Source: Bacilli bacterium (GTDB lineage Bacteria > Bacillota_I > Bacilli_A > ML615J-28 > CAG-698). Taken from it: a stretch of DNA of 64,000 nucleotides. Position numbers and translations under genes: made by a program. Positions 36,933 through 55,228 of the stretch are shown here, one piece after another; within the stretch, counting starts at the first letter, position 1; the number at the start of each line of letters is the position of its first letter. The notes under the pieces are model-generated. The model saw nothing but the letters and a program-made list of their open reading frames with translations, searched no databases and was not told the DNA's origin. The DNA lies in assembly GCA_017962745.1 (NCBI GenBank), contig JAGCUR010000016.1, positions 1 through 64,000 on the forward strand, in the 5' to 3' direction.

Positions 36933-38267
36933 CTAAATGTGCGAAAAGCCTAATACATCTAATGCATTTTGGATGTAATCTATTTGCATAAATGTCTTCC
37001 AAATGATTTCACTACGATAATTTTCAATCATTAATACCGTAATACCTTTATCGATACCGATAACGCTACTTGCAATCCATACATTTCTACCATCAAAATT
37101 GAAAGCATCTTTAAAGCCATAATCGCCAACTAAATCACCATCTAATAGCGTAGCATAGTTTCTAAAGACTGGCATAACGAGATCTGGTGCAAATGGTAGT
37201 GATCCAATCGCGCCGCAACAAGCGATAGTGCCATCATTAGTAAACTTCTTTTCGTTACCATTGCCGCTAGGATAAGCGCCAATTAAGCCGCTATAGCCGC
37301 TTGGTGTATCGCAAGCAGTTGTTCCCCACTGGTCTTTCGCAAATGTATTAAAACCTTGCGGGTTAGCTACACAATATTTGTAATTAGCGATTGTAGCGCT
37401 AACGGAATTATCAAACCAGTTAGTGCCATTTTCATCTACGATATCTCTAAAATCGATGAAAGCATGCGAGAATTGGTATGTAAATAATGATCCAAACCAA
37501 GAATTAATTAATGTTTCCCCTTGATAAGTGCCTCTATTTCGCCTAAATGCATAATAAACTTTTTTATCGATTGGATGCGTAGGTGAGCCTGCTCCTAAGA
37601 AATACATCATAAGTTGTTCTGCATATACATCCCAGGCACCGCCAAAATTACCATCTTTATATGACATATAGAAATTGTTAGTTTTCGGATTAACAAACCA
37701 GTTCCAATCTACTTCTTCATATAACTGTCTTGCTAATCTTTCTACTTCATCGCCAAAATATTTACCAGCTACTAGCGCTCCGCAGTAAAAGATTGCGGAA
37801 TCGATATTAGATACTTCTGATCCACTAGCAACACTTCCCATTTTTTCTTGGTAGAAATGATAAAAGAATCCATGTTCTTTTGGAAGATCGGCTACATGCG
37901 TTAATGTCAATAAGCATCTATCATAACCTTCTTGTCTTGTAATATAGCCATTATTAACGCCAACTACAAAACTTGCAAGGCCAAAACCGACTGATGCGAT
38001 TGATGCTAACCCATTTGATGGATAGCGGTCTGGAATTAGACCGCATCCACCAAGTAATTCGTTAGTATTTTGCGTTTCCCAGAAGAAATAAAAACTATCT
38101 TCTTCCTCAGCTAGCATGTATTCGTTTTTTAAATATGTTTCGCGTTTGCCTGAAGGGGTTCCTGACCCGCCTTGTTGGCCACCTCCGCCTTCGCCCCCGC
38201 AACACGGTAAAACAAATAAAGCTAGTAATAATAATATTAGTAAGAATTTTTTAAGGAGATTTTTCAT
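36933..38267 (-). CDS. Glycoamylase/GH144-like lipoprotein, probable extracellular beta-1,2-glucanase
   Basis: 444 residues. Lipobox LPCC (Cys 22), a Gly-rich linker, then an alpha/alpha-barrel domain of the PF10091/GH144 type: SFYFFWETQN, SEVSNIDSAIF (from 150), AWDVYAEQLMMYFLG, FSHAFIDFRDIV and GIDKGITVLMIENY. It is clearly a paralogue of the C-terminal domain of the 1500-residue phosphorylase in the same operon. The characterised GH144 member cuts beta-1,2-glucan internally, and the genes beside it point to the same substrate. The ATG overlaps the upstream stop by one base. Confidence 0.75.
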   Translation of the reverse strand: MKNLLKKFLLILLLLALFVLPCCGGEGGGGQQGGSGTPSGKRETYLKNEYMLAEEEDSFYFFWETQNTNELLGGCGLIPDRYPSNGLASIASVGFGLASFVVGVNNGYITRQEGYDRCLLTLTHVADLPKEHGFFYHFYQEKMGSVASGSEVSNIDSAIFYCGALVAGKYFGDEVERLARQLYEEVDWNWFVNPKTNNFYMSYKDGNFGGAWDVYAEQLMMYFLGAGSPTHPIDKKVYYAFRRNRGTYQGETLINSWFGSLFTYQFSHAFIDFRDIVDENGTNWFDNSVSATIANYKYCVANPQGFNTFAKDQWGTTACDTPSGYSGLIGAYPSGNGNEKKFTNDGTIACCGAIGSLPFAPDLVMPVFRNYATLLDGDLVGDYGFKDAFNFDGRNVWIASSVIGIDKGITVLMIENYRSEIIWKTFMQIDYIQNALDVLGFSHI

Positions 38268-40177
38268 TACATACCACCAAGTCCTGTCTTATCGATACCT
38301 TGAACGAACCATTTTTGTAATACGAAGTATAAAAGTAGTAATGGTAAAATACTGATCAAAGTACCTGCCATATAAACGGCATCATTTAATTTATCGGTAT
38401 AACTACTGCTTTGTCCCGCGGACGCATATACTGATCTATACGATTCCGCAAACCTCGATAGCTGCATTGGTAGCGTCGATGAGTTAGCAATGTATAGTGA
38501 TGTTAAATATGTTTCATTCCAATACCATACAAAACTAAAGATAAACGCTACGATGAAGATGGTAGATGAAAGTGGAATCGCTACTCTAAAGAATATTTTA
38601 AAGCGACCAGCACCATCTAGCATCGCTGCTTCATCTAATTCTACCGGTAACATAATAAAGAATTCGTAGAACAATAAGATAAATATGGCATTCTTTAAAC
38701 CTTGCGCAAAGGTTGCTGGCAATGCAAATGTTAAGATAGATCCAAGTAAGCCAAGCTTACTATAAGTAACATAGGTTGGAATCATTAAAATTTGCGATGG
38801 AATAATAAATGAAGCAATTATTAAACCAAATACTGCCTTTTTACCTTTGAATTTAAACTTAGCTAGGCCGTAACCAACTAGGGATGTTGATGCCACTTGT
38901 AAAAGTGTTGGCACTAAAGCATATAGTACTGACTGGCCTAAAGCTTTAAAGAAACCAATTGTCTTAAAGGCCTTCACGAAGTTTTGGAAATATAACTTCG
39001 TTGGTATTAAATTAACTGATGGATTTAAAACATCATCAGGCGATTGTAAACTAATTAATAACATATAAATAAATGGATATAAGAAAGCGAAGCTCATTAC
39101 ACCAAGTAAAACATATGTAAATATCTTTACAATAATACCATCCGATAAGTTACGTCCTAAAACGATACGTTTAATCTTCTTTCCTTTTGGAGTTGAATTA
39201 AAGAAGTTAGGTTGCAAATCATATCTCTTAGTTGTTGTGAAGTATCCTTCAATTGAACCATATTTCTTCTCTTTCTTTCTAAATTTACCAAAGAAGATTA
39301 AGAATAATATGGCAATTATAATCGCTAAAGCAAGGAAGTATAACCAAGCTAAAGCTGATGAGAAACCAAATCCTTTACCAATTTGCGTATCAAACATACA
39401 ATTCTTGATAACATTGATAACGCCATTGTTATCAAATGTTGCTAGCAAGATAAATGTATATACTAAATTGATAAAAATCGCTGTCTTTAGTGAAGGTAGG
39501 GTTATTTTCCAGAATTGTTCCCAGACACTTGCCCCATCCATTTGACTAGCTTCGTACATGCTCTTATCTAGTTTTTGAAGCACTGTTAAATAAACGATTA
39601 ACTGTACGCCACTAAACCAGAACATATAAACTAAGTTTTGGAATGTCCTAACGATAAAGTTAGATACGGTAGCTCCTAGGGTAGTTCCGATTAAGTTAAC
39701 AATACCAAAATCACCAATAGTACTCATTACAATAACGTTTTTATCTACTAGTTCGCTCATTACCGGTCCTGATACGATAACTACTGGTAAGAAGAATATC
39801 GTTCTAAAGAATCCTCTTCCTTTAATATTACCGTTTAGGATAACCGCAAATAATACCGCGAAGACGTTAATAATAAATACCATTATTAAGCTTTCTTTTA
39901 AGAAACTTAGTAATGCTTGAATCATCGTACGATCGGTAGTAAAAGCTGTTTGGTAATTACCAACGCCAATCCAATCAGTTAAAATACCATCAGCACTAAT
40001 TGTTACTTTATTAAAGCTTAAGAATAATGAATAAATCATCGGAAAGGCACCGAATACCAAAAAACCAATTATCCAAGGACTAACGAATGCTAAACCAGCT
40101 AAGTTATCACGCTGAGCATTGTTTAGTCTTTTCTTTTGTTTCATTGGGGCATTAGATAATACTTTTGTTTCTTCCAT
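38267..40177 (-). CDS. Single-chain fusion of MalF- and MalG-type sugar permeases
   Basis: 636 residues in one uninterrupted frame. The first half is MalF-like (six helices, EAA loop YEASQMDGASVWEQFWKITL at about 208-227), followed by a Lys-rich cytoplasmic linker (about 300-350) and a MalG-like half (six helices, EAA loop DEAAMLDGAGRFKIFFRVAI at about 515-534). The two halves are normally separate proteins that pair in a carbohydrate ABC importer. The ATPase is not encoded here. It follows the DUF5696 gene directly and is followed by the lipoprotein glucanase gene. Confidence 0.88.
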   Translation of the reverse strand: MEETKVLSNAPMKQKKRLNNAQRDNLAGLAFVSPWIIGFLVFGAFPMIYSLFLSFNKVTISADGILTDWIGVGNYQTAFTTDRTMIQALLSFLKESLIMVFIINVFAVLFAVILNGNIKGRGFFRTIFFLPVVIVSGPVMSELVDKNVIVMSTIGDFGIVNLIGTTLGATVSNFIVRTFQNLVYMFWFSGVQLIVYLTVLQKLDKSMYEASQMDGASVWEQFWKITLPSLKTAIFINLVYTFILLATFDNNGVINVIKNCMFDTQIGKGFGFSSALAWLYFLALAIIIAILFLIFFGKFRKKEKKYGSIEGYFTTTKRYDLQPNFFNSTPKGKKIKRIVLGRNLSDGIIVKIFTYVLLGVMSFAFLYPFIYMLLISLQSPDDVLNPSVNLIPTKLYFQNFVKAFKTIGFFKALGQSVLYALVPTLLQVASTSLVGYGLAKFKFKGKKAVFGLIIASFIIPSQILMIPTYVTYSKLGLLGSILTFALPATFAQGLKNAIFILLFYEFFIMLPVELDEAAMLDGAGRFKIFFRVAIPLSSTIFIVAFIFSFVWYWNETYLTSLYIANSSTLPMQLSRFAESYRSVYASAGQSSSYTDKLNDAVYMAGTLISILPLLLLYFVLQKWFVQGIDKTGLGGM

Positions 40178-42334
40178 CTATGCCACCTTATAACTTCTAG
40201 CATTCACTAAAAGCCCTTCATAATTATATTCATTATTAGTATAGTTAACGATTATGCGCTTACCATTGCTATAATCAACTACGCTTATTCCTTCACTTGG
40301 AATAATACGATTAACAATAGTTGCCCCGCTCACTTGATTAAGTACACTACTAATCATTACATATTGTTCTTTGATCATATCAGCTACAGAATCATAATAT
40401 GTAGCATAATAATCACTAGATAAAGTATTTGATAATAAGTAACTTGGTTGCTTACTAATTAAATATGCTGGACTTACACCATATTCAATACACTTCAAAA
40501 CATCTAAATCGATGTTTGAAGAAAAGTTTAGATAAGGTGAATAATAATCAATATATCCTTTAAGTAAGATTTCTAAGAACGGAACGGAATCCGTTACAAA
40601 TCTTGTTCTTTCCGAATATAGTGGCATATTTAAATATTTTGATGTATTAGCTAAGAAATAATAATTAGGTTTATACATTGGTAGTTTATCTTCCCCTAAC
40701 AGGCCAGAATATGTTGCTAACATTTCACTTCTTGTTAATTTATTATTCTTATCACCATATAAACGGTATCCAATTCCATCTAAAGCAATCCTACCATCAT
40801 ATTTATCAACTGCTTTTAAAGTATATTTCACTACATCTTTCGCATTAGCATAAAACTTATATTTATTGGCTTCCACCGCAATATAATTCTTTTCATTATA
40901 TAAGTTAACTAATACTTTATTTGGATAACTCTTCTTTGAGTTATAACTTTCCACTGGATTATAGTAGAAATATGCTTCTAAATCTTTCAAATCATGCATT
41001 GAACCAAGTTTTCCATCAAACTTATAATTCTTAACGCTTTGGTTTGAATAACCTTTTTTATTAAATGCACGTAAAGTATAGAAAATATTATTAACTCCAC
41101 CTTCTTCTAAATCTTCATTAATATGAATGATATCTTTAGTAGTAGTCATATTTTTATACTTTTTAAAGATTAAACCTTTTTCATAATCACGGCCAAATGC
41201 TTCAATTTGGATATCTATTGGATTAGAATCGCTATTTCTTTGTAAAATACCATCTTCGATTAAAGTATTTCTATAAGCTTCTGCCATTCCTAGATAATTA
41301 GCTTTTTCATCAGATAAGAATGTATATTCAATTTCCATATCCACATCATAATTATTTTCCGGAATCATTAATATTTGATCAGATCCAGGGATTGATAAAT
41401 AATAAATCTCACGCGTATTAAATGTAGTGTAGATGAAATTAAATCCTTGATCGATGTTAGCTGGACTATATGTAAGAGTGGTGAATGCTTCACCGCTTTT
41501 AATATTTACAAGCATCGCATTTTGATTTACACCATGACATAAGCCATAAATCGGTAAGCTCAATACTTCATTTTCCGTATTTTTAGAAATATTAGCATCA
41601 GTTCCATAAAACTTAGCAGAATATGTAGATGTGATTGGGGAAGTTGATGAATATCTAACTAGGGCGCCACTTCCTGATGGTAAAAATACATAACCAGGAA
41701 TGTTATCTTTATAAACAGCTCCTAAATATGGAAACATCGTAATAGCAGTTAGTTTGTTTGCTCCCGTTTCACTAATTTCGCTAGCTTTAATTAAGACATC
41801 GATTGAATAATCATTTAGCGTTATTTCATAACTAAATCTAATATCTGCTTTATCTAACAATACATTAACAGTTAGTTTATTACCACTAACAGAATCTGTA
41901 AGTTTTGCTGCAGTATCTGCCGCATATACATCTTTTACATTACCATCTTCATTACGGTATAAAACCTTAAAGGCAGATGTTAATCTTTTCTTTACTGCAT
42001 TATTAAAGTTATAATCATCGATATTTAAAATATCGCTTGCCCATACGTAACTTGTATCTTTATTTAAGATTCTAATAGCACCATTTGCTTTATTATAGAA
42101 TAATTCTAGGTGGCTATTTTCTAATTTAGAATCAAAATCGCTTAAGTCTACTGCTCCTTGGTTATATGCAGTTTCATCATCCATATGGGTAAATAGAGAT
42201 GAATCGATAAAGAATTCAGATGTATCTTGAAGCTCTTCTTCTTTAGCTTTTACTTTATTATTATTTAGAGCAAGGAAGCATACTGTAACTAGTACAAATG
42301 AAAACAAAACGATGATTCTTAATTTTTTAATCAT
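40178..42334 (-). CDS. DUF5696 domain protein, exported
   Basis: 718 residues with an N-terminal hydrophobic signal or anchor (about 5-25) and the characteristic GYVFLPSGSGALV element near residue 215. DUF5696 proteins commonly lie beside Firmicutes sugar ABC transporters with unknown role. The middle and C-terminal parts resemble a barrel (for example RIALDGIGYRLYGDKNNK) but no catalytic pair is certain. The start overlaps the NHL/Yip1 gene by 4 bases, and the stop touches the fused permease start. Confidence 0.7.
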   Translation of the reverse strand: MIKKLRIIVLFSFVLVTVCFLALNNNKVKAKEEELQDTSEFFIDSSLFTHMDDETAYNQGAVDLSDFDSKLENSHLELFYNKANGAIRILNKDTSYVWASDILNIDDYNFNNAVKKRLTSAFKVLYRNEDGNVKDVYAADTAAKLTDSVSGNKLTVNVLLDKADIRFSYEITLNDYSIDVLIKASEISETGANKLTAITMFPYLGAVYKDNIPGYVFLPSGSGALVRYSSTSPITSTYSAKFYGTDANISKNTENEVLSLPIYGLCHGVNQNAMLVNIKSGEAFTTLTYSPANIDQGFNFIYTTFNTREIYYLSIPGSDQILMIPENNYDVDMEIEYTFLSDEKANYLGMAEAYRNTLIEDGILQRNSDSNPIDIQIEAFGRDYEKGLIFKKYKNMTTTKDIIHINEDLEEGGVNNIFYTLRAFNKKGYSNQSVKNYKFDGKLGSMHDLKDLEAYFYYNPVESYNSKKSYPNKVLVNLYNEKNYIAVEANKYKFYANAKDVVKYTLKAVDKYDGRIALDGIGYRLYGDKNNKLTRSEMLATYSGLLGEDKLPMYKPNYYFLANTSKYLNMPLYSERTRFVTDSVPFLEILLKGYIDYYSPYLNFSSNIDLDVLKCIEYGVSPAYLISKQPSYLLSNTLSSDYYATYYDSVADMIKEQYVMISSVLNQVSGATIVNRIIPSEGISVVDYSNGKRIIVNYTNNEYNYEGLLVNARSYKVA

Positions 42335-44373
42335 GTCCTGTACACTCCTTCCCTAAATAGTCCGATGATGAATTGTACGAATTGCATAGTTAAGATATAG
42401 AATACTAAATATAAAAGTACCATAATCACTACTGCTACAAATGTAAGGATTACATTTAAGATAAATTCACCTAGCTTATAATTATGAATTTGGCTAATCA
42501 TTATTATTAAGTTAACGAAAGACCAAGCCCATAACAATCCATTTAGTATTTGATATAGATATCCTTCATTATAAGTTAGGAAGTTACTAATTAGATCAAC
42601 TGGAATCTTAAATAAGATTATCGGTGCAAATGATACCATTGTACCAATAAAGATATCTCTAAAGAATCCTTCACCACTTTGCAGTGTTGATACTAAATAG
42701 TTACCGATTACAAATAAGATAATTACTAGTCCCCATCTCAATAATTCAAAAGCAAAATTCATATCTTTTACATTAGTAGATCTAAATAAGTAGCCTCTAA
42801 TAAAGTAATCACCAAAGATGTTAATTAAAATAAATACAATGAATAATAACCAAGCGGTTCTCGTTCTAATCTTTAAACCAAACTTGATATCATAAAAGAC
42901 ATCTTTTGGCTTTCTAAAGATCTTAAGCAAATATTTTAATTCATTTATTAATTTAGAATTATTAATCTTTTCTTTAAACTTCGTTAAATCAATCTTTGTT
43001 AAGTGCCATAATCTTGAATATACGTGGAATATCTTTAATAAGATTAAGACAACTAGAACAATTATCATCCATACTAAGTTTTTATTAAACCAGTCATCTC
43101 TTAATTCCCAATATACTTCACTATAACCCGATTTATAATTAGCTAGTTTAAAGTATTCAATTGCTTTATCATAATCTTCTAATCTTTGGGCAATTTTACC
43201 TAAGCCAATATAAGCACTTACAAAACTAGCACTTTGGCGTAATATTTCTTCATATGCGCTAGTTGCTGCTTCATAATCACCTTCATTATATGCAAGAATT
43301 GCTTTAGTGACTGTACTAGCAAATGATGTTTTACGGAAGACTTGAATGTTCTTTCCGCCACCATCTAATACCCAAATATTAAAGTTAGAATCAACAGCGA
43401 TACCTTTTGCACTATCGAATTCACCGATCAAGCTCGATCCTGATTTTGTGGAACCAAAGGAGAAAAGTAGGCTTCCTTCGGGATCCATTACTTGGATAAC
43501 CCCTTCGCTTGAAGCATCAACTGTATAAATAAAGCCATTATTATCAACCGTAATATCTTTGTATGATGTAGAGAAGAATGATGCTTTGGCTAAAACATTA
43601 GTACCACTAATGTTATATTTTTTAAGACTCGTTCCTGTCTCACCATCAATTACAGTATAGACGATATTCTTTTTATCGATCGCTAAGTTAGTTGTTGCTT
43701 TTGGTGCTAAAGATGCATAAGTTTCGCGGTCTTCTTTGGATAAGAATAAACGTTTAATAAATAATGATGCAGTTAACTTTACATTATTTGGACCAAAATA
43801 GCCCATGAATTCACCATCGCTATTTAGTTGGATAATACCAGTTGAGTTACCTTCACTCGTAATGAAAATATTACCGTTCTTATCTACCACTACTTTTGTT
43901 GGACGGTACTGGCTATCTTCCCCAAATAAAGCTTCTGTTGGACGGCCAAACTCGCGTAAAAGCGTACCCGCGTTATCAAATTTATAAACGCTCTTTTCAT
44001 CAGCTACGAAAATATTGCCATCACTATCAGTACATACTCCTTGCGGACTAGAAAGGGTTCCTTCCCCAATCGTTGTAACATTAGCCGTAGCTATTTCGTA
44101 GCGGTATACTACTTTTGCTCCCTTATCCGCAATAAAGGCAATATCGTTATTATCGATATAAATATCTTGCGGATTAGTTAGCCCAATATTAATTACATTA
44201 ACACCTTCATATGCTAGTGGCGAAATTGCAAGTTCGCCATCTAGGCCAACCGCATATGTATTATATGGGTTCGAATTGATTTCGCTTTTTGCGACTACTT
44301 TTAAGTTAAATGCTAATAGGCAAATGCAGAATACTACTAGTACCATTAGTATTCTAGTTATCATTTTCTTCAT
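42331..44373 (-). CDS. NHL beta-propeller, TPR and Yip1-type membrane protein
   Basis: 680 residues. Signal peptide (1-28), then an NHL-type propeller outside the membrane (about 60-350; repeated xNIFVADE, NGNIFITSEG, NGFIYTVDAS), two TPR-like helices pairs (about 355-425: YNEGDYEAATSAYEEIL, LEDYDKAIEYFKLA), one membrane helix, a basic cytoplasmic segment, and five helices of Yip1/YIPF type at the C terminus. It sits between permease genes with one- and four-base overlaps, so it is probably a structural or sensing partner of the transporter. Function unknown. Confidence 0.75.
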   Translation of the reverse strand: MKKMITRILMVLVVFCICLLAFNLKVVAKSEINSNPYNTYAVGLDGELAISPLAYEGVNVINIGLTNPQDIYIDNNDIAFIADKGAKVVYRYEIATANVTTIGEGTLSSPQGVCTDSDGNIFVADEKSVYKFDNAGTLLREFGRPTEALFGEDSQYRPTKVVVDKNGNIFITSEGNSTGIIQLNSDGEFMGYFGPNNVKLTASLFIKRLFLSKEDRETYASLAPKATTNLAIDKKNIVYTVIDGETGTSLKKYNISGTNVLAKASFFSTSYKDITVDNNGFIYTVDASSEGVIQVMDPEGSLLFSFGSTKSGSSLIGEFDSAKGIAVDSNFNIWVLDGGGKNIQVFRKTSFASTVTKAILAYNEGDYEAATSAYEEILRQSASFVSAYIGLGKIAQRLEDYDKAIEYFKLANYKSGYSEVYWELRDDWFNKNLVWMIIVLVVLILLKIFHVYSRLWHLTKIDLTKFKEKINNSKLINELKYLLKIFRKPKDVFYDIKFGLKIRTRTAWLLFIVFILINIFGDYFIRGYLFRSTNVKDMNFAFELLRWGLVIILFVIGNYLVSTLQSGEGFFRDIFIGTMVSFAPIILFKIPVDLISNFLTYNEGYLYQILNGLLWAWSFVNLIIMISQIHNYKLGEFILNVILTFVAVVIMVLLYLVFYILTMQFVQFIIGLFREGVYRT

Positions 44374-45245
44374 TATTTAATACCTGAATGAGACATAGTG
44401 TCCATAACCTTCGATTGTAAGAAGATAAAGATGACTAAATTTGGTACGAATATAATCAACGCTGCAGCTGCACTTACACCAGCTCCACTAATACTATTAG
44501 AAGCATTAGTTAGAGTTGATAAGTAGTATGCAAATGTTTGAAATTCTTCTTGGTTAACATATAAATTAGATGTTTCCGTATTATTCCATGCTGTCTGGAA
44601 GGCTAGAATTGCTACCGTTACTAAGGCTGGCTTAATTAATGGTAAGATTATCTTCGTATAAATGAAGAAATCACCAGCACCATCCATCTTAGCGGCTTCA
44701 ATTAATTCATTTGGCACTTCATCAATAAATTGTTTTACTAAGAATAGTCCTACTGGAATAGCAAGTAATGGTAAGATGTGCGCCCATAAAGTATTAATAA
44801 TACCAATCTTTGAGATAATTAAGAATCTTGGAATTATTACCGCACAGCTTACGAACATCATTGATAAAGTATTGATTTCGAATAATACTGATTTTAGTTT
44901 AAACTTCTTCTTTGATAAGATGTAACCAGCCATTGAAGATATCAAAACTGATAGGGCCGTTACCGCTAAAGTAACAATAATACTATTGATTAAATAACGA
45001 TAAATCGGCAGGCCAGTTGAACCACTTCTTTGGAATAGATCCACGAAGTTACCAAATGTCGGGTTACGTACAAAGAATTTTGGTGGGAATTCTAACAACT
45101 CATCTAATGGTTTAAAGGCTGATACAAACAAATAAATGATTGGTAAAGCCATAAACGCAGCTAGTGGGACGATGATGATGTAGAACTTGATTTGATCTTT
45201 AGTAAAACGTTTAGGGTTGAACTTTGTTCCGGTATTATTTCTCAT
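44373..45245 (-). CDS. Carbohydrate ABC transporter permease, MalG type
   Basis: 290 residues with six hydrophobic helices and the EAA loop [21 protein letters not shown], the site of ATPase contact. Overlaps the MalF-type gene by 4 bases and the NHL/Yip1 gene by 1 base. It pairs with the gene upstream to import an oligosaccharide delivered by one of the two solute-binding proteins in this operon. Confidence 0.93.
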
Positions 45246-46225
45246 CGTTTTTTACCCCCTTTCTTTTCACGAAAGACGCTAGTAAAAATACGATTGAAGA
45301 TGTACACGATTATTAGTAAGATTACTGATAATGCGGCACTCATACCTAGTTCTTTTCTTAAAACGCCATAGTCATCGATGTGGTTAACAACAAGTTGGCC
45401 AGCATTTTGTGGAGTTGGGTTCGAACCAGATAGCTGAACACCAATGGCTCCGGAACTAAATGCCCCTACAATTGCCATAACGGCACCGAATAACATTTGT
45501 GATTTCATATTTGGAATCGTAATATAGAATATTTCTTGAACACGGTTTCTAACTCCATCAATGGCAGCTGCTTCGTATTGTTCTTGATCTACATTAAGTA
45601 AACCAGATAACATGGCAAGGAATCCTATACCCATACTACTCCATAAAGTTACCATCATCATAACTGGCATTAAGTATTCAGGTGACTGTAACCACTGAAC
45701 TGGTTCAGTTATAATACTCATGTTTAATAATATTGAGTTTAAGTAACCTTGTTCATCACCACTAAAGATAATCTTCCATAGAACTGTCATAGCGACACCT
45801 GATGTCATTGATGGTGAATAAATAATTAAAGCTAATACAGTTCTAGCACCTTTTTGGATTTGTGATAAAATCCAAGCTAAAATAAATGAAAGTACATATC
45901 CACCAGGACCAACTACTAAAGCAAATACCAATGTATTTGGTAAAATTGTCTTCATGAAGTCAGAATCTTGCGTGAATAAATATACATAGTTATCTAGCCC
46001 TACAAATTCTGGTTTTGAAATACCATTATAATATGTAAAGCTAAAGATAATCGCTACGATTATTGGTAGCACAATAAATACGATAAACATTAAAACATAT
46101 GGGAATAAGAAAATAATACTAGTTCGATTGCCTTTATCCATCCATTGGCTAATCTTATCACCCATATTCTGGAAGAACTTTTTAACTTTCTTAAGGAAAG
46201 GTTGCTTTTCTACACTATTTTCCAT
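45242..46225 (-). CDS. Carbohydrate ABC transporter permease, MalF type
   Basis: Start set at ATG 46225 behind AGAGG, two bases after the stop of the large solute-binding protein; a longer TTG start at 46246 would overlap that gene. 327 residues, six helices and the EAA-type loop [20 protein letters not shown]. The partner of the MalG-type gene that follows. Confidence 0.9.
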
Positions 46226-46227
46226 AA

Positions 46228-49167
46228 TTAGCCTCTTTCCTGCCAAGACTTAATTTCTTCAAGGGATGGAACCTTGTAAGGTTTTAAAACATTACCGTCT
46301 TTATCTAAATATTTAAATTCTATCATCTTACGCTTAATCTCACGGTTTATTTCTAATGAATAATCCGTAACTGCTGCTCTTACTGATACCGTGTTAAATA
46401 CACATGAATTCCATGCATTAGAAATTCCACGTTCGATCATGTAAGTAGCTGGTGTTTGAGGAACTTGATATAAGTATTCCCATTGATCTAAGATGACTTG
46501 TTTATCTTCTTCTGGGATCGCTAGCGTCTTAAATGCTTCAAGATTAGCAGTATTCCATAAGAATAACTGACCATAAGTAGCTTGGATTCCGGCCGCAAAC
46601 CTTGTTTGCGTTTCGGTAGATAACCACCACTTCAAGAAATCCCAAGCTTGATCTTTTTTCTTTGACTTTTCAAAAATTACAACTGTTTTAGAATCAGCAG
46701 TTTGGGTTCTATTGATGTATTCATCTTCAGTTCCTTCATTATATTTAACACCAGGTGTTAATGTAATACCCCATTTACCTACAATTTCCGGAGCAGCATG
46801 AGTTAATTGTAAATAAGTATCGAAGTTAGCAATACCAACTGGACTCATACCATTTCTAAAATCGTTATAGAAGTTTTGGGTTGTAAGTGGAAGCGAATAA
46901 ATCGTGAATAAATCAACCATCATTGTCATCGCTTGAATTCCTTCTGGCGTATCAATTTCCGCTCTTAGGAAATCATCGCTATAAATATTGCATCCATATT
47001 GATAATAGAATGCGGAAGTGGTTCCAAGTGATTTTAAACCTGCTCCACCGGCCATTGGCATATAGAAATTCATTCCATAACGCTGCAAAGTAGGTAACAT
47101 TCCGATAATATCTTCGTAAGTTTCTGGAATTTCTAAGCCAATCTTATCTAAAATATCTTTTCGATAAAATAGAACTTGGAAATCTTGCGTTTCTGGTAAG
47201 CCGTATACTTTTTCACCTTCAATAAAACTAATTAGTGAACCTGGTGACATCGTCTTAATCGTTGTATAGAACCCGTCCATACTCCTAAGATCGGCTAGAG
47301 CCCCTCTAATACCTAATGTATAAGGAACCCCTGATCCAACCCCAATTGCCGCATCAGGTTGCGTATTAGAGGCATTAGCATATGTTAGTTTAGATTCATC
47401 AGGAAGTAAGCTTAGTCTTACTTTAATACCACTTGTTGGTGTATAGTAAGCATCTGCGAACTGTTGAAGAAGGGAAACATAATATGTTGAACGATTCATC
47501 CAAATAGTTACGCAATCTTTATCAGCTGCATCTACTTTTGATCTAAATACTCTTTGGCTAGTCGCAAAGTACTTAACAAAGAAATTATTTCTAATCTTTG
47601 GTAGTTTTGCTTGATCCCCATAAATATAAATCTTATCGATTGATAATGGACTAAATGTTGATGTATGAAGGGAATTACTTAGCATTAGTGATGCTGATGC
47701 AGATCCTTCATATAAAATATTTAATTTAGTCGGTAACTTATTTGGATCTTTAGCTAAAGAGACAATCTTTTTGTATGCATTATTGATTTGTTGATACAAA
47801 CGATTCTCTTTTTTCGGATTAGACATACTATATTTACTAACATATTCAAGTAAATCTTCTAATCTTTCTTTCCAATTGTTAAGTCTAGTTCTAGCAGTTG
47901 GAATAAAAGCATCGATATTCCAAGTCTTGTTCTTATCGCTATTACCACCAGTTAACTTAATAATTTCTAGATATAATTCATTTATTTCATTAATTAAGCT
48001 AACAAGTTCATAATAAATTGGTGCTTGATAAGATGCATCAAGTTGGAATGTTAAGAAATGTTCACCTTCAGTGAAGTAAAAATACATGTCTTCATCGTTA
48101 TTATTAAGTATTTCATAATCGTAAGAACCTTTACGATTATTTAAATTGTTTTTAAAACAATATCTATTTAAGTTATCATATAAAACAACATTATCTAATA
48201 ATATTTTTGAATAAATTGATGTAAATGTTTGGGAAATATAATACTTAATAGCAATTTTATAATAACCAGCTTCATTTACTTTAAAAGCATAAGTAATACT
48301 ATTACCAGATTGATTGAATGAATCACCTGATAAGTTGTTTAACTTATTCTTTGAAGTTGAAAATGGTGTTAAATGTGGCATCTGACTAGATGTAGCAGAA
48401 ATATCAGGAGATGATTTATAAGTAGGCTCTTCTCCTTCTAAAACTATCATCTTGTCGCTTGATGCTACATTATTTGGTTTTTCATAATTACTGTAAGAAC
48501 TCTTTCCAAAAATATAAATATCACCAAGTAGTAAATCACCTGTAGCTTTTTCGATTTCAATCGTATGAGCTCCACTAGTTAGATAAATTGACATCGGTGT
48601 ATCGTTATAATAACGTTGGTCGTATAAGAAATACTTGCTCCAAACATCATATCTAACTTGCATTTGATTTACTTCATTTTGGTAAATATCATATACTTCC
48701 TCTCTTGAAGAGTCCGTCCAATATGTCGGTAAGCAGGCATTGGCATAATCATCGTTGTTTACGCCATCCACTCTTACGTTAACAGTAATATCTTGGACAT
48801 CGTTTTGTAGAGACTTGTAATCTAGAGCTAGCTCGTATTCATCACTAGTCGCTACATTTATATTAAAAGTAATGATATCATCACCAGACCAACGATATAC
48901 TTTTTTACCGTATTCTTCATCATCTAGTAAGTTTGCTTCATCAATCACTGTATTAATTTCAACTTTTTGATAATTCCTCTCTTCATCAAACGAAAGTAAG
49001 GTAGTATGAGCAGGGAACAAGTTGCTCCCTTGCTCATCTTTACTCACGTTAACAAAAAATGAAATTATAATTAATAAAAGATTTATTAAAGCAAAGACGA
49101 GAAAGAATCGTATAAAATACTTTTTAATCATCGCTCCGGTAATTTTACCTTTTAACTTGAGAGCCAT
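46228..49167 (-). CDS. Large membrane-anchored solute-binding protein with extra N-terminal beta modules
   Basis: 979 residues. An N-terminal membrane helix (about 16-36) without a lipobox anchors it. Two beta-rich domains follow (about 60-225 and 235-390; the second contains SITYAFKVNEAGYYKIAIKY), both carbohydrate-binding in style, then a helical linker. The last 430 residues are an extracellular solute-binding domain, family 1: LPDESKLT, GLPETQDFQVLFYRKDIL and KKDQAWDFLKWW. It delivers sugar to the adjacent permease. The extra modules may hold polymeric substrate near the transporter. Confidence 0.8.
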   Translation of the reverse strand: MALKLKGKITGAMIKKYFIRFFLVFALINLLLIIISFFVNVSKDEQGSNLFPAHTTLLSFDEERNYQKVEINTVIDEANLLDDEEYGKKVYRWSGDDIITFNINVATSDEYELALDYKSLQNDVQDITVNVRVDGVNNDDYANACLPTYWTDSSREEVYDIYQNEVNQMQVRYDVWSKYFLYDQRYYNDTPMSIYLTSGAHTIEIEKATGDLLLGDIYIFGKSSYSNYEKPNNVASSDKMIVLEGEEPTYKSSPDISATSSQMPHLTPFSTSKNKLNNLSGDSFNQSGNSITYAFKVNEAGYYKIAIKYYISQTFTSIYSKILLDNVVLYDNLNRYCFKNNLNNRKGSYDYEILNNNDEDMYFYFTEGEHFLTFQLDASYQAPIYYELVSLINEINELYLEIIKLTGGNSDKNKTWNIDAFIPTARTRLNNWKERLEDLLEYVSKYSMSNPKKENRLYQQINNAYKKIVSLAKDPNKLPTKLNILYEGSASASLMLSNSLHTSTFSPLSIDKIYIYGDQAKLPKIRNNFFVKYFATSQRVFRSKVDAADKDCVTIWMNRSTYYVSLLQQFADAYYTPTSGIKVRLSLLPDESKLTYANASNTQPDAAIGVGSGVPYTLGIRGALADLRSMDGFYTTIKTMSPGSLISFIEGEKVYGLPETQDFQVLFYRKDILDKIGLEIPETYEDIIGMLPTLQRYGMNFYMPMAGGAGLKSLGTTSAFYYQYGCNIYSDDFLRAEIDTPEGIQAMTMMVDLFTIYSLPLTTQNFYNDFRNGMSPVGIANFDTYLQLTHAAPEIVGKWGITLTPGVKYNEGTEDEYINRTQTADSKTVVIFEKSKKKDQAWDFLKWWLSTETQTRFAAGIQATYGQLFLWNTANLEAFKTLAIPEEDKQVILDQWEYLYQVPQTPATYMIERGISNAWNSCVFNTVSVRAAVTDYSLEINREIKRKMIEFKYLDKDGNVLKPYKVPSLEEIKSWQERG

Positions 49168-49217: not shown

Positions 49218-50729
49218 TTAATATTCTAATCCCATTGAAGCATAGTCATCAGCAACAAGCTTATTGATCTTGTCATTTAATTCTTTAGTCATATAGTTAA
49301 TATAATCATTAATTGAAATCTTGCCTTCGCAAGTATCCCATACTAAGTCACCAATTGTTAGAAGATTACCTTCTCTAACACCTTCAATTGAAATACCAGT
49401 GTTAAATGTATATCTTGCTTTTAAGAAGCCAGGAACTGTCTTATTACCTTCAACGATAACTTCTACTTTTCCCGCATTAACTGCATCAAATGTTTCTTGT
49501 AAACCTTTCATCTTAATGTATGAGAACCATTTAGTAGAGATTTCTGGTTTTGTATTTAGTGGAATACAAGTTAAAGATAAACCTGCATCTGGGTTTTGAT
49601 CTAAAATATCGAACATTGCTTGAGCGCCTTCAGCACCGAATGTCATATATTTTGCAACTTCATAAGCAGCTTCAGCGTGTTTTGTGCTCTTAGAAATACA
49701 TATGAAGTCAGTAGCAGCTGTTACTTTTCCGTTAGGATATGAAGTAAATGTGCAATCGAAATCAACATTTTCATATGTTCCAGCCCAAGAACCTTCTTGG
49801 ATGAAGCCCATTCTACCAGCGATAAATACATCGCTTGGAGAACCTGGACCTAAAATTAAAGATCTATATTCTTCGGCGTCTTCTCCTTCACCGACTGTTG
49901 CTGGAATTGAGTTATAAACATATTGGCTTTGTGGATCGCCTAAATCAGCAATAACTCTTAAAGCATCAAGTAATGCTTCACTTCTGAAATCAAATTCATG
50001 ACCATTCCAAGTAAAGTGTTTAGTTCTACCAGTTGTATCGAATGTAGCAGGAAGCCAGTTGATCATATCACCAACAGCGTTCATACCGATAACACCAGTT
50101 CCATCCATATGGTTAATATCTTTCATTGATTTAACTACATTAATCCATTGTTCAGTAGTGAATTCACCAGGTGCGAATAATTCTTCTGCACTCTTGTCAC
50201 CAGTTAGATAATCATCGATTAAATCTAAGTTAGCAAATAATCCCATGTAGTATTGACCAGCAGGAACTGCATAGATCTTATCATTGTAAGTAATTGAATC
50301 TCTTAAAGCAACTGGAATATCTGTCCATTCGCTATCGGCTTTAGCAAGGCTAGTAATATCCATTGCCCATTGGTTAATAACAGCACTAGGTACGCTATTA
50401 ACAAAGAATACATCAGGAAGTTCGCCTGAAGCAGCCATTGTAGCTAAGAATTCATCATAACCAGAGCCATCTACTGGAACTACCATTTCAATACGAATAG
50501 TGCTTGATGCTTTATTAAAAGCTTCAACTCTTCTTCTTGTTAAATTATTATCTTCTTCTGTACCAAAATTCCAGCTACAGAATGTTACGACTGTCTTACG
50601 TGTTTTACCACCGCCACCGCCTTGGCTTCCGCCGCCGCCTTCATTTCCGCCTTCTCCACAAGCGAATAGAATTAAACTAAATAGGCAAATAAATACTGCC
50701 ATTACAATTGTTAAGAATCTTTTTTTCAT
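49218..50729 (-). CDS. Extracellular solute-binding lipoprotein
   Basis: 503 residues. Lipobox FACG (Cys 24), Gly/Ser-rich linker, then an extracellular solute-binding protein, family 1 fold (VVTFCSWNFGTEEDN at the first strand; PDVFFVNSVP; IFIAGRMGFIQEGSWAG). The start codon overlaps the stop of the phosphorylase gene (ATGA), which ties substrate binding to the enzyme. It would correspond to the sophorooligosaccharide-binding protein beside the Listeria innocua phosphorylase. Confidence 0.9.
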   Translation of the reverse strand: MKKRFLTIVMAVFICLFSLILFACGEGGNEGGGGSQGGGGGKTRKTVVTFCSWNFGTEEDNNLTRRRVEAFNKASSTIRIEMVVPVDGSGYDEFLATMAASGELPDVFFVNSVPSAVINQWAMDITSLAKADSEWTDIPVALRDSITYNDKIYAVPAGQYYMGLFANLDLIDDYLTGDKSAEELFAPGEFTTEQWINVVKSMKDINHMDGTGVIGMNAVGDMINWLPATFDTTGRTKHFTWNGHEFDFRSEALLDALRVIADLGDPQSQYVYNSIPATVGEGEDAEEYRSLILGPGSPSDVFIAGRMGFIQEGSWAGTYENVDFDCTFTSYPNGKVTAATDFICISKSTKHAEAAYEVAKYMTFGAEGAQAMFDILDQNPDAGLSLTCIPLNTKPEISTKWFSYIKMKGLQETFDAVNAGKVEVIVEGNKTVPGFLKARYTFNTGISIEGVREGNLLTIGDLVWDTCEGKISINDYINYMTKELNDKINKLVADDYASMGLEY

Positions 50730-53700
50730 TTTTCTTCTCCTTTTATAAAATTCAATTTTTCTAAAGCCTTCTTAGTCATATCACAACACATGAAATACTT
50801 CCAAACCGTCTCATTTTGATAATTATCTAACATGATAATGGTTGGACCTTTATCAATACCAATATAGCAATCACTAATATAGCCACTATCTAGGTTATAT
50901 GAATCACATAACCCATATTTTTTATTTAATCCTTCAATTGTATTAAAATATTCTAATGCTTTTAAGGATTCTTTTGGCGTAAATACAATACTTGATAGAG
51001 CTGCATAAGGAGCAACACTACCATCTAATTCTTGCTCAATTGGTTTACCAAAGCCCCAAGGTGGTGCTCCAAATACCTTATAACACTTTTCTCCTTGAAA
51101 TGCGGTTAAGCCCCAAGAGTTTTCCCCATATGATTTAGACCATGTTTGATCGATACAATATTCTCGATTTGCAAGGGTTGCTTCAACCGAATTTTTAAAC
51201 CAATCAATATTATCATCGGTTTTTAGATTTCTAAAATCGATAAAACAGTGACTAAACTGATGGATGAATAAGGCATTTGTGTAACAATGAATTAATTCAT
51301 CACCTTTATATTTACCAATGTGCCTTGTAAACCCATGATATAAATCTAGCGAGTCTTGCTTACTTGTATCATCTTTAGCCGCATACAAGTAATACATCAT
51401 CAATTGTTCTGCGTAATGATTCCAAGTCGCTGGACAATACCCATTATTTTCTTGCCAAATATGATTTGAATAAGCCATCTTAATTACTTTCTTGCCATTT
51501 TCTAAAGTAACAAAGTGATCCCAGTCAACTCGATTGACTAAATACTTAACATCTTTTTCAATATCACCTTTAAAGTAACTTGCTGCTGTGATTGCCCCCA
51601 TTAATAAAATGGCGGTATCGATTGTAGAAAACTCACTATTTTGATTTTCCCCCGTAACTGGATCCACAAAGTGTGGTAACAATCCATGGAAATCTTCAAT
51701 CTTTAATATTGAATCAATGGTATTCCTTACAATCTTTCTTGCTTCATCTTGACTAATTAGGTTTCTACTTGCCGCTACTACCATCGCTGCTAGTTCAAAA
51801 CCAACGCCTGCTGTAGAACAGCGGTATCTTTTCGATGTTGCAAAGATTTTATCAAGGGTTAAGCCATTTTCTCCTGATTCACCTAAGAAAAAATCTAAGC
51901 ATCCTTTAATTTCTTTATTGATCAATTCATTTTCTAAATAAACATCAATAACTGTACTATCTTTAATTAATGATTTATCAAATACAAAGCCACCATTTCG
52001 ATAATGGTTAGTTGCATCTTGATATTTTATCTCTTTACCATTTATTAATAATTTCTTCTTAGTTTGATTTAGATGATAATGAATTAATACATCTTTATCG
52101 TTTATTTGATAATTGAGGCTAAAATCTCCTAAATAACTAGGAATTAGCGGATCCATAATAACTTGTTTTGCTTCTTCTTTAATTCCTAAGAAATTAGTAA
52201 TTAAATTATTTAAATAAATTCCTGGGCCACTTGAATATACTCGCCAGCCACCTTTAACGCCCACTTCACCATTTTTTAGTTTATTAAAATTAGCAATTGC
52301 ATCATATCTAGTATTAAAGCAACCATCGCTACTACTAAAATATGAATTTCTTTGGCGCGGTAAAGCATTTTTAACTACATCCGTTACAATGATTGGATTA
52401 ATCTTTTTAAGTCCATCATAGAAATGACATGATAAACCTAATTTATGCATTGCTTCTAAATATCTTACATTAGCATGACAATACTGAAGTCCAATTTCTC
52501 TACCAAAGTTAGCAGCAGTTTCTGCACGGTTGAAATAAGTTTTAATTCCGCCATTATACTTAACAGCATCACTCATCAACCTTACGCCATCTGGAAACAT
52601 CAAATTATCATCGATAATCTTAGCGCATCTAATCGCTTGATCATAATCAAACATTTCGCTAATGATTCCTCTAGTCAGAGGCAGCAAACGATACTTAATG
52701 CCACTAGCTTGATCTGATGGATGAAGGATGTATTCAATTCCTTCATTTCTAAAATGAATGAATCCAGCTGGCACTCCATCTTTAAAGACTAATTTGTTGT
52801 AGTCTTCTTTAATGCCACTAGCAAGTTTTGATAATCTAATCGATAATTTCGAATCTACTTCGCTTAAAGAAAGAGATAATTTCTTAAATGCTTCATAAGT
52901 TAGACATGTTGTCCAACCTGATACCATTTCTTTCTTATGGTCGCTATTAGCAGGCTGAAGTGTATCATCCCAGTCACCACCACCATAACAAGATAGTTTA
53001 GTACCATTTATGAAATTAGCTTCAATTGTATCTATTTCTTTTATTAAATGATCTTTAATGCTATAAGCTTCAGTATATTTAATACCTTCGCGACTAGTAT
53101 ATGGTACTTTCTCATCTAGAATCGCAAAATCATCAGTTGCTTCTAAATATTTAGCTAGTAACATTGCTGGCCATACGATAACATCCCCATGGCTTGATAA
53201 GTCTTGAATGTTATAAAACTTATCAAACATAAACCATTGAGGGAAATTACCATTTTCAATATATTGGTGCTTATAAACATCTAAAATGATGTTTTTAGCA
53301 CTACCAAACTTATGCATACTTAAGAATAGTTCGGCTGGGCCTTGGCAAACATCTCTAGTTCCCCATGCAGCACCACTATATTGTTCTAGTCCATGCGGAG
53401 TGAGATAATGACACATCGCATCATGATAATACCAATATACTAAATAATTTAATGATTCTAACTCTTTAACCCCTTCAATATTAAAGCCATTAACAAACTT
53501 TTTAGCTTCAGCTAAATAGTTAGGAACTTCTTTTTCAAACTCTAAATGTTTACTATCGGTAAAACTGCTACCAATAAATAACTTAAAGTTATTAGAATTT
53601 AGGCTAAATGTTAATAAGTTTTCATCTCTTGATTTATTATCTAAATAAAATACGCGATCATCACTTACTTCATATACTTGATTTATACCAACTTTGAAAT

Positions 53701-55228
53701 ATAAATCCGGATATCTATTATAAGTCATTGAATCTTTATCAAATAATACTTTAGTAACTAGCTCTTCTTTTTCTATATGAATTAGACTTTCATGTTCCCT
53801 CTCACCCATAACTAAGTGATTAGTGATGATTAAATCATATTTAATTCCTTTAAGTGATTTAAATTCCAATTCAACTTTTGATGTTTCATAACTTACATAT
53901 GATTTAATTTCTAAAGTATCATCTTCAAGTTTATAAATCCATTTAAGGTAATTAATACCCATGATAAATACGCTCGGCATACAAAGTAGCTTGTATTTAT
54001 CACCATGTTTAATAAAAATTCTTTGTCCACTAATCTTTTGTACATTCAGTGGATTTCGCAAATTACTTAATAATTTATTAAATGATGTGTTTCCACACAC
54101 AACTTGTGAGTTGAACAGACCAAATATATAACCAGTTGATGCCATAACATTTTCAAAATCATAAGTAACATCATTAAACTTGTTTTGACTGTAAATTATA
54201 TTGCCACTAGGTCGCTCTAAATATTTTTCTTTATGATTTAAAACAACATGCGCTTTATTATCTAGAAAGAATGATGCTAATATTCCATCGATTCTTTCTT
54301 CTAAGCATCGATTAGGAAATAAATCTTTAACTTCTTCTTCATCTAAATCTTTACCGTTTAGATAATCTAGATAACTGATCTTTAAATCTAGACTAGAATA
54401 TTTATCTTCTTCAAAAATATATTTTCTATTTTCGACTTTTTTATAAAGTTCTTTAACTTGATCTTTATATAAAGGTTTAGAAATAGCTTCTGGATGCCTA
54501 TCGCTATAATATGAATAAAATACTATTCTTTTTGCTTCTTCTAAATCAACTTTTTCACTTTGAATTGCATGATATGCAAATTCATATTGATAAATTTCGC
54601 TATCTAGCTTTGGTTTAGATAAGCTAACTGGTAAGTTAGTAAATTTATAATCTTTACCAAAGAATTGAAAACCATCGATATCATAACTAACATTTTTAGA
54701 AAGCGTTGATGTTTCAAGATATAAGCTATCACCTTGGTTTTGACGTGAACATAAAGTATAGCCATCATCATCTAAATATGCTTTATGATCAATATATTGT
54801 GATACATATGCTTCATTATTAGAGATCGCATAAATATTACTAATTGATACATCTAAACCATAAAATACTTCTACTATTTTACCTTTAGCTTCACTTAATC
54901 TGACATCAAATAGTAAAGCGTTTTCAATAATTGAAAAAATAATATGGTACGATACACCTTCAAAACTACCTTTATATACGACATAATTATTAATATCATC
55001 GTTAGTAAAAATTACTTTTGTTGGCGAATCAATACCAATCATTCTAGAATATTTACCATCTACTCTAATGAATAAGTTAGCAACTGATGGTTCTAAGTTG
55101 TTACCAACATATGTATTGATGCGGTTTATTCCGCTTCTAATTTCTTGGATATTACCACTTTCTAAGATCTTAGCATTAAGAAATTCACTACCAATAACAT
55201 ACGTTTTGATTTGATTTTTCGGAAACAT
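50726..55228 (-). CDS. GH94/1,2-beta-oligoglucan-phosphorylase-like enzyme fused to a C-terminal glycoamylase/GH144-like domain
   Basis: 1500 residues, no signal peptide, so cytoplasmic. The first 1100 residues read as a 1,2-beta-oligoglucan phosphorylase: an N-terminal beta-sandwich (to about 570), an (alpha/alpha)6 barrel starting YLVYWYYHDAMCHYL with GAAWGTRDVCQGP (619-631) and GGGDWDDTLQPAN (749-761, probable catalytic Asp752), and a closing beta domain. Residues 1108-1500 are a second alpha/alpha barrel (NSEFSTIDTAILLMG, NHYAEQLMMYYLY, FSHCFIDFRN, GIDKGPTIIMLDNY), the same fold as the lipoprotein in this operon. Expected products are glucose-1-phosphate and shorter oligomers. First gene of the operon. 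Confidence 0.82.
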   Translation of the reverse strand: MFPKNQIKTYVIGSEFLNAKILESGNIQEIRSGINRINTYVGNNLEPSVANLFIRVDGKYSRMIGIDSPTKVIFTNDDINNYVVYKGSFEGVSYHIIFSIIENALLFDVRLSEAKGKIVEVFYGLDVSISNIYAISNNEAYVSQYIDHKAYLDDDGYTLCSRQNQGDSLYLETSTLSKNVSYDIDGFQFFGKDYKFTNLPVSLSKPKLDSEIYQYEFAYHAIQSEKVDLEEAKRIVFYSYYSDRHPEAISKPLYKDQVKELYKKVENRKYIFEEDKYSSLDLKISYLDYLNGKDLDEEEVKDLFPNRCLEERIDGILASFFLDNKAHVVLNHKEKYLERPSGNIIYSQNKFNDVTYDFENVMASTGYIFGLFNSQVVCGNTSFNKLLSNLRNPLNVQKISGQRIFIKHGDKYKLLCMPSVFIMGINYLKWIYKLEDDTLEIKSYVSYETSKVELEFKSLKGIKYDLIITNHLVMGEREHESLIHIEKEELVTKVLFDKDSMTYNRYPDLYFKVGINQVYEVSDDRVFYLDNKSRDENLLTFSLNSNNFKLFIGSSFTDSKHLEFEKEVPNYLAEAKKFVNGFNIEGVKELESLNYLVYWYYHDAMCHYLTPHGLEQYSGAAWGTRDVCQGPAELFLSMHKFGSAKNIILDVYKHQYIENGNFPQWFMFDKFYNIQDLSSHGDVIVWPAMLLAKYLEATDDFAILDEKVPYTSREGIKYTEAYSIKDHLIKEIDTIEANFINGTKLSCYGGGDWDDTLQPANSDHKKEMVSGWTTCLTYEAFKKLSLSLSEVDSKLSIRLSKLASGIKEDYNKLVFKDGVPAGFIHFRNEGIEYILHPSDQASGIKYRLLPLTRGIISEMFDYDQAIRCAKIIDDNLMFPDGVRLMSDAVKYNGGIKTYFNRAETAANFGREIGLQYCHANVRYLEAMHKLGLSCHFYDGLKKINPIIVTDVVKNALPRQRNSYFSSSDGCFNTRYDAIANFNKLKNGEVGVKGGWRVYSSGPGIYLNNLITNFLGIKEEAKQVIMDPLIPSYLGDFSLNYQINDKDVLIHYHLNQTKKKLLINGKEIKYQDATNHYRNGGFVFDKSLIKDSTVIDVYLENELINKEIKGCLDFFLGESGENGLTLDKIFATSKRYRCSTAGVGFELAAMVVAASRNLISQDEARKIVRNTIDSILKIEDFHGLLPHFVDPVTGENQNSEFSTIDTAILLMGAITAASYFKGDIEKDVKYLVNRVDWDHFVTLENGKKVIKMAYSNHIWQENNGYCPATWNHYAEQLMMYYLYAAKDDTSKQDSLDLYHGFTRHIGKYKGDELIHCYTNALFIHQFSHCFIDFRNLKTDDNIDWFKNSVEATLANREYCIDQTWSKSYGENSWGLTAFQGEKCYKVFGAPPWGFGKPIEQELDGSVAPYAALSSIVFTPKESLKALEYFNTIEGLNKKYGLCDSYNLDSGYISDCYIGIDKGPTIIMLDNYQNETVWKYFMCCDMTKKALEKLNFIKGEEK

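What the first reader, a model, noticed from the sequence alone, without database searches (positions are those of the whole stretch)
50726..55228. Phosphorylase fused to an endo-glucanase-like barrel in one cytoplasmic protein
Residues 1-1107 resemble 1,2-beta-oligoglucan phosphorylase and 1108-1500 are a glycoamylase/GH144-like domain. Cyclic beta-1,2-glucan synthases also contain both kinds of domain, but in the order glucosyltransferase, glycoamylase-like, phosphorylase, and in a membrane protein. Here the order is reversed, the synthase domain is missing and there is no membrane segment. An intracellular coupled cutter-phosphorylase would make long imported oligomers accessible.
Basis: partly seen in the sequence, partly recalled or inferred. 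Interest (0 to 1): 0.85.

Follow-up and report, generated by a model that had tools for sequence, protein, structure and literature searches.

The report
Fused β-1,2-glucan cutter and phosphorylase
An uncultured, rumen-related bacterium has joined two cytoplasmic sugar-processing enzymes, one that cuts β-1,2-glucan chains and one that strips glucose phosphate off their ends, into one protein; the parts and the pathway are known, the fusion appears to be new, and the separate form of the same pair is widespread in its relatives.

Summary
Confirmed. The minus-strand ORF 50726-55228 (1500 aa) is an SOGP-type GH94 1,2-β-oligoglucan phosphorylase (residues ~1-1099) joined without a linker to a GH144 β-1,2-glucanase domain (~1101-1500), with no signal peptide or membrane segment. 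Both active sites look intact: the GH144 pair E211/E142 of CpSGL appears as E1274/D1204, and the predicted C-domain (pLDDT 94) matches GH144 structures best. It is not an assembly artefact: an independent same-genus genome has the same single ORF (80% identity, dN/dS 0.15). In the nearest other family member the halves are two genes overlapping by 8 nt, so the fusion probably arose from an overlapping operon pair. In ~1,900 genomes searched, 88 carry SOGP and only these two are fused. The C-domain belongs to a well-supported clade of cytoplasmic GH144s; at least 26 of 32 SOGP genomes in this class carry one, usually with a separate lipoprotein GH144, GH3, LacI and importer genes. The partnership is thus old and general; only the covalent fusion is new. 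Likeliest role: catabolism of imported β-1,2-glucans, the cutter supplying short chains (SOGP's preferred substrates) and opening rings or long chains. Activity and coupling are inferred. New variant of a known kind.

The parts
50726..55228 (-). Fused gene, 1500 aa: SOGP (GH94) - GH144
51932..55228 (-). 1,2-beta-oligoglucan phosphorylase half, residues 1-1099 (SOGP_N, SOGP_2nd, GH94 catalytic, SOGP_4th); GGDWDDT motif at residues 750-756
   Evidence: Pfam; phmmer 5h3z E 2e-234; motif position
51875..51955 (-). Linkerless junction, residues 1092-1118: last SOGP strand runs into first GH144 helix
   Evidence: pLDDT ~90-96 here; DNA compared with L003, L005 and L026
50729..51928 (-). GH144 beta-1,2-glucanase half, residues 1101-1500
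   Evidence: fold match TM 0.85-0.87 to CpSGL/XcSGL; tree
51617..51619 (-). D1204, equivalent of CpSGL E142 (candidate general base)
   Evidence: PMC12102758
51407..51409 (-). E1274, equivalent of CpSGL E211 (general acid)
   Evidence: PMC12102758
49218..50729 (-). ABC solute-binding lipoprotein; overlaps the fused gene by 4 nt
46228..49167 (-). Solute-binding protein with N-terminal membrane segment and weak CBM35-like region
44373..46246 (-). Two ABC permeases (45242-46246, 44373-45245)
42331..44373 (-). NHL/TPR protein conserved in these loci
40178..42334 (-). DUF5696 protein conserved in these loci
38267..40177 (-). Double permease (two fused permease domains)
36933..38267 (-). Second GH144, a lipoprotein (extracellular)
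34790..36925 (-). GH3 beta-glucosidase without signal peptide, relative of Lin1840 (4zoa) and of JMB19063/5xxl
30838..31827 (-). LacI-type regulator

Best explanation
A cytoplasmic two-enzyme protein for catabolism of imported beta-1,2-glucans. A lipoprotein GH144 outside trims the polymer and the ABC importer brings products in. The C-terminal GH144 domain then endo-cleaves whatever is long (or cyclic) into Sop2-Sop5-sized pieces. The N-terminal SOGP phosphorolyses pieces of DP 3 or more to glucose 1-phosphate and sophorose, and cytoplasmic GH3 hydrolyses sophorose. The protein arose in one genus when a cytoplasmic GH144 gene that overlapped the end of the SOGP gene lost the intervening stop. 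Shown: sequence, predicted fold, conserved catalytic residues, gene context, phylogeny, purifying selection. Inferred: activities, substrate, and any benefit of physical coupling.
For: Domain and structure assignments. Catalytic residues kept: E1274, D1204, F1321 and Y1383 are 100% conserved in the 33 cytoplasmic and 34 lipoprotein homologues. Same fused ORF in a second same-genus genome, dN/dS 0.17 (SOGP), 0.16 (junction), 0.09 (GH144). Split, 8-nt overlapping pair in G006/L005 and adjacent pair in G038. The C-domain lies in a starred clade of cytoplasmic GH144s; at least 26 of 32 SOGP genomes of the class have one and 22 have both forms. Conserved locus with importer genes, lipoprotein GH144, GH3 and LacI. 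SOGP is ~50 times more efficient on Sop3-5 than on DP77 glucan and does not use Sop2 (PMC3960220); Lin1840-type GH3 prefers Sop2 (PMC4757417).
Against: No activity was measured. SOGP alone can in principle degrade linear chains, so the cytoplasmic cutter may be of minor importance. Six of 32 SOGP genomes showed no cytoplasmic GH144, though that search scored only the best two candidates per genome. The fusion could be neutral. A GH144 relative (BDI_3064) is exo-acting (releases Sop2), so endo action is not certain.
Confidence: 0.72

Rival explanations
1. The fusion is a near-neutral accident of an overlapping operon pair: both enzymes work, but being joined gives only equal dosage, no kinetic coupling.
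For: The split form with 8-nt overlap exists next door phylogenetically; fused and separate forms carry the same conserved residues; the fusion is confined to one genus.
Against: The fused state is kept at 80% identity with purifying selection across the junction; the model shows a linkerless join with pTM 0.84, which may or may not matter.
Confidence: 0.45
2. The C-domain is an exo-acting sophorose-releasing GH144 (like BDI_3064), so the protein shortens oligomers two units at a time by hydrolysis alongside phosphorolysis.
For: An exo-type enzyme that releases Sop2 is known within GH144 (PMC8861115, PMC11842490); 5z06 is among the structural matches.
Against: Sequence and fold matches to endo enzymes 8xul/5gzh are better than to 5z06; BDI_3064 has an extra ~300-residue N-terminal region outside the GH144 match, and PMC8861115 describes this exo-enzyme as having an unknown-function N-terminal region. 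No such region precedes the separate cytoplasmic homologues.
Confidence: 0.15
3. It works in reverse: SOGP builds a cytoplasmic beta-1,2-glucan reserve from glucose 1-phosphate and the GH144 domain trims or mobilises it.
For: SOGP is reversible (PMC3960220).
Against: The locus is built for uptake: two solute-binding proteins, permeases, surface GH144, GH3, LacI.
Confidence: 0.05
4. [quoted passage not shown]
For: Same clan-like fold (8wy1 TM 0.83).
Against: GH189 identity is 14% and sequence E 2e-4 against 25-29% and E ~1e-36 for GH144; the GH144-type acidic pair is conserved.
Confidence: 0.03

Closest known systems
[quoted passage not shown] Lin1839, LpSOGP 5h3z)
   Same: Residues 1-1099 align over the whole enzyme (E 2e-234), all four SOGP domains present, cytosolic
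   Different: LpSOGP ends at the C-terminal sheet; here a GH144 barrel follows directly
GH144 beta-1,2-glucanase (CpSGL 5gzh/5gzk, XcSGL 8xul)
   Same: Fold TM 0.85-0.87, catalytic Glu and base-position acid, clan-defining Phe and Tyr kept
   Different: Fused to SOGP; its clade lacks signal peptides
[quoted passage not shown] 8rf0)
   Same: Also contains a glycoamylase-like barrel and a GH94 domain
   Different: Membrane synthase; middle domain is GH189, GH94 domain not SOGP-type, order reversed, glycosyltransferase present
beta-1,2-glucan gene clusters of Listeria innocua (lin1839, lin1840 and neighbours) and Ignavibacterium album
   Same: SOGP or GH94, GH3, solute-binding protein; Ignavibacterium has two GH144 genes (PMC8861115)
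   Different: No fusion reported; importer here has an extra double permease, NHL/TPR and DUF5696 genes
BDI_3064 (5z06), exo-acting GH144 with N-terminal domain
   Same: GH144 domain preceded by another domain
   Different: Its N-terminal part is not SOGP; acts by releasing sophorose

Membership tests
SOGP (GH94) | SOGP_N, SOGP_2nd, GH94 catalytic and SOGP_4th domains | tested here: met
   all above Pfam cut-offs
SOGP (GH94) | Catalytic Asp motif GDWxD of GH94 (D739 in Lin1839) | tested here: met
   GGDWDDT at 750-756, aligned with LpSOGP GGDWDDT; Lin1839 D739 itself not mapped residue by residue
SOGP (GH94) | Phosphorolysis of beta-1,2-glucooligosaccharides of DP 3 or more | not testable with these tools
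   needs enzyme assay
GH144 | Best sequence and fold match to GH144 rather than GH162/GH189/GH192/GH194 | tested here: met
   GH144 E ~1e-28 TM 0.85-0.87; GH194 (8xuk) TM 0.79; GH192 (8xuj) 0.76; GH189 (8wy1) 0.83 at 14% identity; GH162 (6imu) 0.70. GH193 was not among the listed matches
GH144 | General acid E211, base candidate E142, F268 and Y330 (CpSGL numbering) | tested here: met
   E1274, D1204, F1321, Y1383; Asp at the base position is also found in XcSGL
GH144 | Hydrolysis of beta-1,2-glucan with inversion | not testable with these tools
   needs enzyme assay
[quoted passage not shown]
   no such Pfam match, no membrane segment

The most novel reading that the evidence does not exclude
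A dedicated cytoplasmic machine that linearises imported cyclic (or substituted) beta-1,2-glucans and passes the fresh ends directly from the GH144 site to the SOGP site across a rigid interface, i.e. a natural endo-hydrolase/phosphorylase with substrate transfer, by which rumen-type bacteria feed on the osmoregulatory glucans of other bacteria.
Probability: 0.15. Interest if true: 0.7.

Novelty: new variant of a known kind. Interest (0 to 1): 0.42.

Why it matters
No SOGP-GH144 fusion was found in the papers or genomes searched, and a natural join is strong evidence that the two enzymes act on the same cytoplasmic substrate. It points to a wider rule, which the papers read here do not describe: β-1,2-glucan loci in these Bacilli carry two GH144 enzymes from separate clades, one on the surface and one in the cytoplasm. 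That raises a testable question: why cut again inside if SOGP already degrades chains from the end? Import of rings or long glucans is the obvious candidate. A bifunctional enzyme would also be useful for making glucose 1-phosphate or defined β-1,2-oligosaccharides.

Tried and rejected
Assembly join or frameshift artefact: rejected (same ORF in a second genome, selection across the junction). Loss of catalytic residues: rejected. GH189 or cyclic-synthase derivation: rejected. Cytoplasmic versus lipoprotein GH144 differing in the active site: none of the mapped catalytic or clan residues differ, so no change of activity can be read from them. Wider distribution: 88 SOGP genomes in ~1,900 searched; no other SOGP match lay in an open frame above ~1,230 aa; plasmid records gave no fusion. 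The one genome-contig scan used six short peptide patterns and would miss distant fusions. An alignment (A2) with smeared GH144 rows was discarded and replaced by a trimmed one (A3). The two-domain model gives high pTM (0.84), but no coordinates are available, so the distance between active sites was not measured. Literature searches for GH94/GH144 fusions or a sophorose phosphorylase found none; most subscription papers are not held.

Full report
WHAT IS THERE. The minus-strand ORF 50726-55228 encodes 1500 residues without interruption. Pfam places the four SOGP/GH94 modules at 21-1093 and the PF10091 glycoamylase domain at 1268-1482. phmmer aligns residues 27-1092 with the crystallised SOGP of Lachnoclostridium phytofermentans (5h3z, E 2e-234) and 1112-1495 with GH144 enzymes (8xul, 5gzk, 5gzh). 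There is no signal peptide or membrane segment (by hydropathy and inspection, not by SignalP).

THE C-DOMAIN IS GH144 AND LOOKS ACTIVE. AlphaFold2 on 34 natural homologues gives pLDDT 93.9. Foldseek ranks GH144 structures first (TM 0.85-0.87, 25-29% identity), ahead of GH194, GH189, GH192 and GH162. In CpSGL numbering, E211 (general acid) is E1274, E142 (base candidate) is D1204, F268 is F1321 and Y330 is Y1383; all four are invariant in 33 cytoplasmic and 34 lipoprotein homologues (residue roles from PMC12102758). Asp at the base position is also present in XcSGL.

THE FUSION IS REAL AND YOUNG. The same single ORF is in an independent same-genus genome (L003/L016/L113; 80% identity), with dN/dS 0.17 for the SOGP half, 0.16 for the junction and 0.09 for the GH144 half. 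In the next family member (G006/L005) SOGP ends ...VIEVYLNG* and the GH144 gene starts inside it (ATGGCTAG, 8-nt overlap); in G038 the two are adjacent. The fused form reads ...VIDVYLENELINKEIKGC..., with no linker. In the two-domain model the last SOGP strand (1092-1099) runs straight into the first GH144 helix (1101-1118), with high local confidence and pTM 0.84. Searching ~1,900 genomes of the window's own phylum, a clostridial class, a Vagococcus-containing class and a Lentisphaera-containing phylum found 88 genomes with SOGP (my count from the match tables) and no further fusion.

THE PARTNERSHIP IS OLDER THAN THE FUSION. A maximum-likelihood tree of 70 GH144 domains splits with strong support into a cytoplasmic side (33 rows, no signal peptide, including the two fused domains) and a side of 34 lipoproteins plus three rows that are an outgroup, a truncated ORF and an ORF with an uncertain start. 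Of 32 SOGP genomes of the window's class at least 26 carry a cytoplasmic GH144 and 22 carry both forms. The clade also occurs without SOGP in one family, there beside a 795-residue GH94 that resembles the GH94 domain of cyclic glucan synthase more than cellobiose phosphorylase.

THE LOCUS. Around the fusion lie two solute-binding proteins, two permeases, an NHL/TPR protein, DUF5696, a double permease, the lipoprotein GH144, a GH3 related to Lin1840 and to 5xxl, and a LacI regulator. The same set recurs across relatives. No ABC ATPase is in the cluster; ATPase genes elsewhere in the genome could serve.

HOW IT PROBABLY WORKS. SOGP removes glucose as glucose 1-phosphate from chains of DP 3 or more; kcat/Km is 17-24 for Sop3-5 but 0.40 for DP77 glucan, and Sop2 is not used (PMC3960220). 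Lin1840 GH3 hydrolyses Sop2 (PMC4757417). A cytoplasmic endo-glucanase would therefore raise SOGP's rate on long chains. It would be strictly needed for cyclic β-1,2-glucans, the usual natural form (PMC11842490; PMC12102758), because a ring has no end for an exo-enzyme to work from. That last step is inference: whether the importer takes rings is unknown. Whether joining the enzymes changes kinetics is also unknown; a neutral fusion of overlapping genes remains quite possible. The best explanation (what the protein does) and the first rival (that the join itself is neutral) are not exclusive, which is why their confidences sum to more than one.

VERDICT. Observation confirmed, interpretation partly supported. 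New domain architecture built from known enzymes in a known pathway, limited to one genus, but it exposes a general two-compartment GH144 arrangement that I did not find described.

Noticed in passing
38267-40177 (-): Double permease: one ORF with two permease domains here and in several relatives (L006-L008, L081, L083, L112, L113), but two separate genes in others (L089, L090, L092-L094, L101, L104, L117, L118, L120). A second fusion or fission in the same locus.
   Followed up: partly
L118:2839-5226, L117:3642-6032, L120:14436-16823: In one family of the class no SOGP was found and a 795-aa GH94 sits beside the cytoplasmic GH144, LacI and GH3. [quoted passage not shown]
   Followed up: partly
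40178-46246 (-): The importer genes include two permeases plus a double permease, an NHL/TPR protein and a DUF5696 protein, a set conserved across relatives, with no ATPase gene in the cluster. DUF5696 and NHL/TPR roles are unknown.
   Followed up: partly
46228-49167 (-): 979-aa protein with an N-terminal membrane segment, a weak CBM35-like region and a C-terminal solute-binding domain, conserved in the locus next to a normal solute-binding lipoprotein.
   Followed up: no
31945-34767 and 55393-56889 (-): Lipoprotein-like surface proteins with Listeria-Bacteroides repeats flank the cluster; the second also carries a CotH kinase domain.
   Followed up: no
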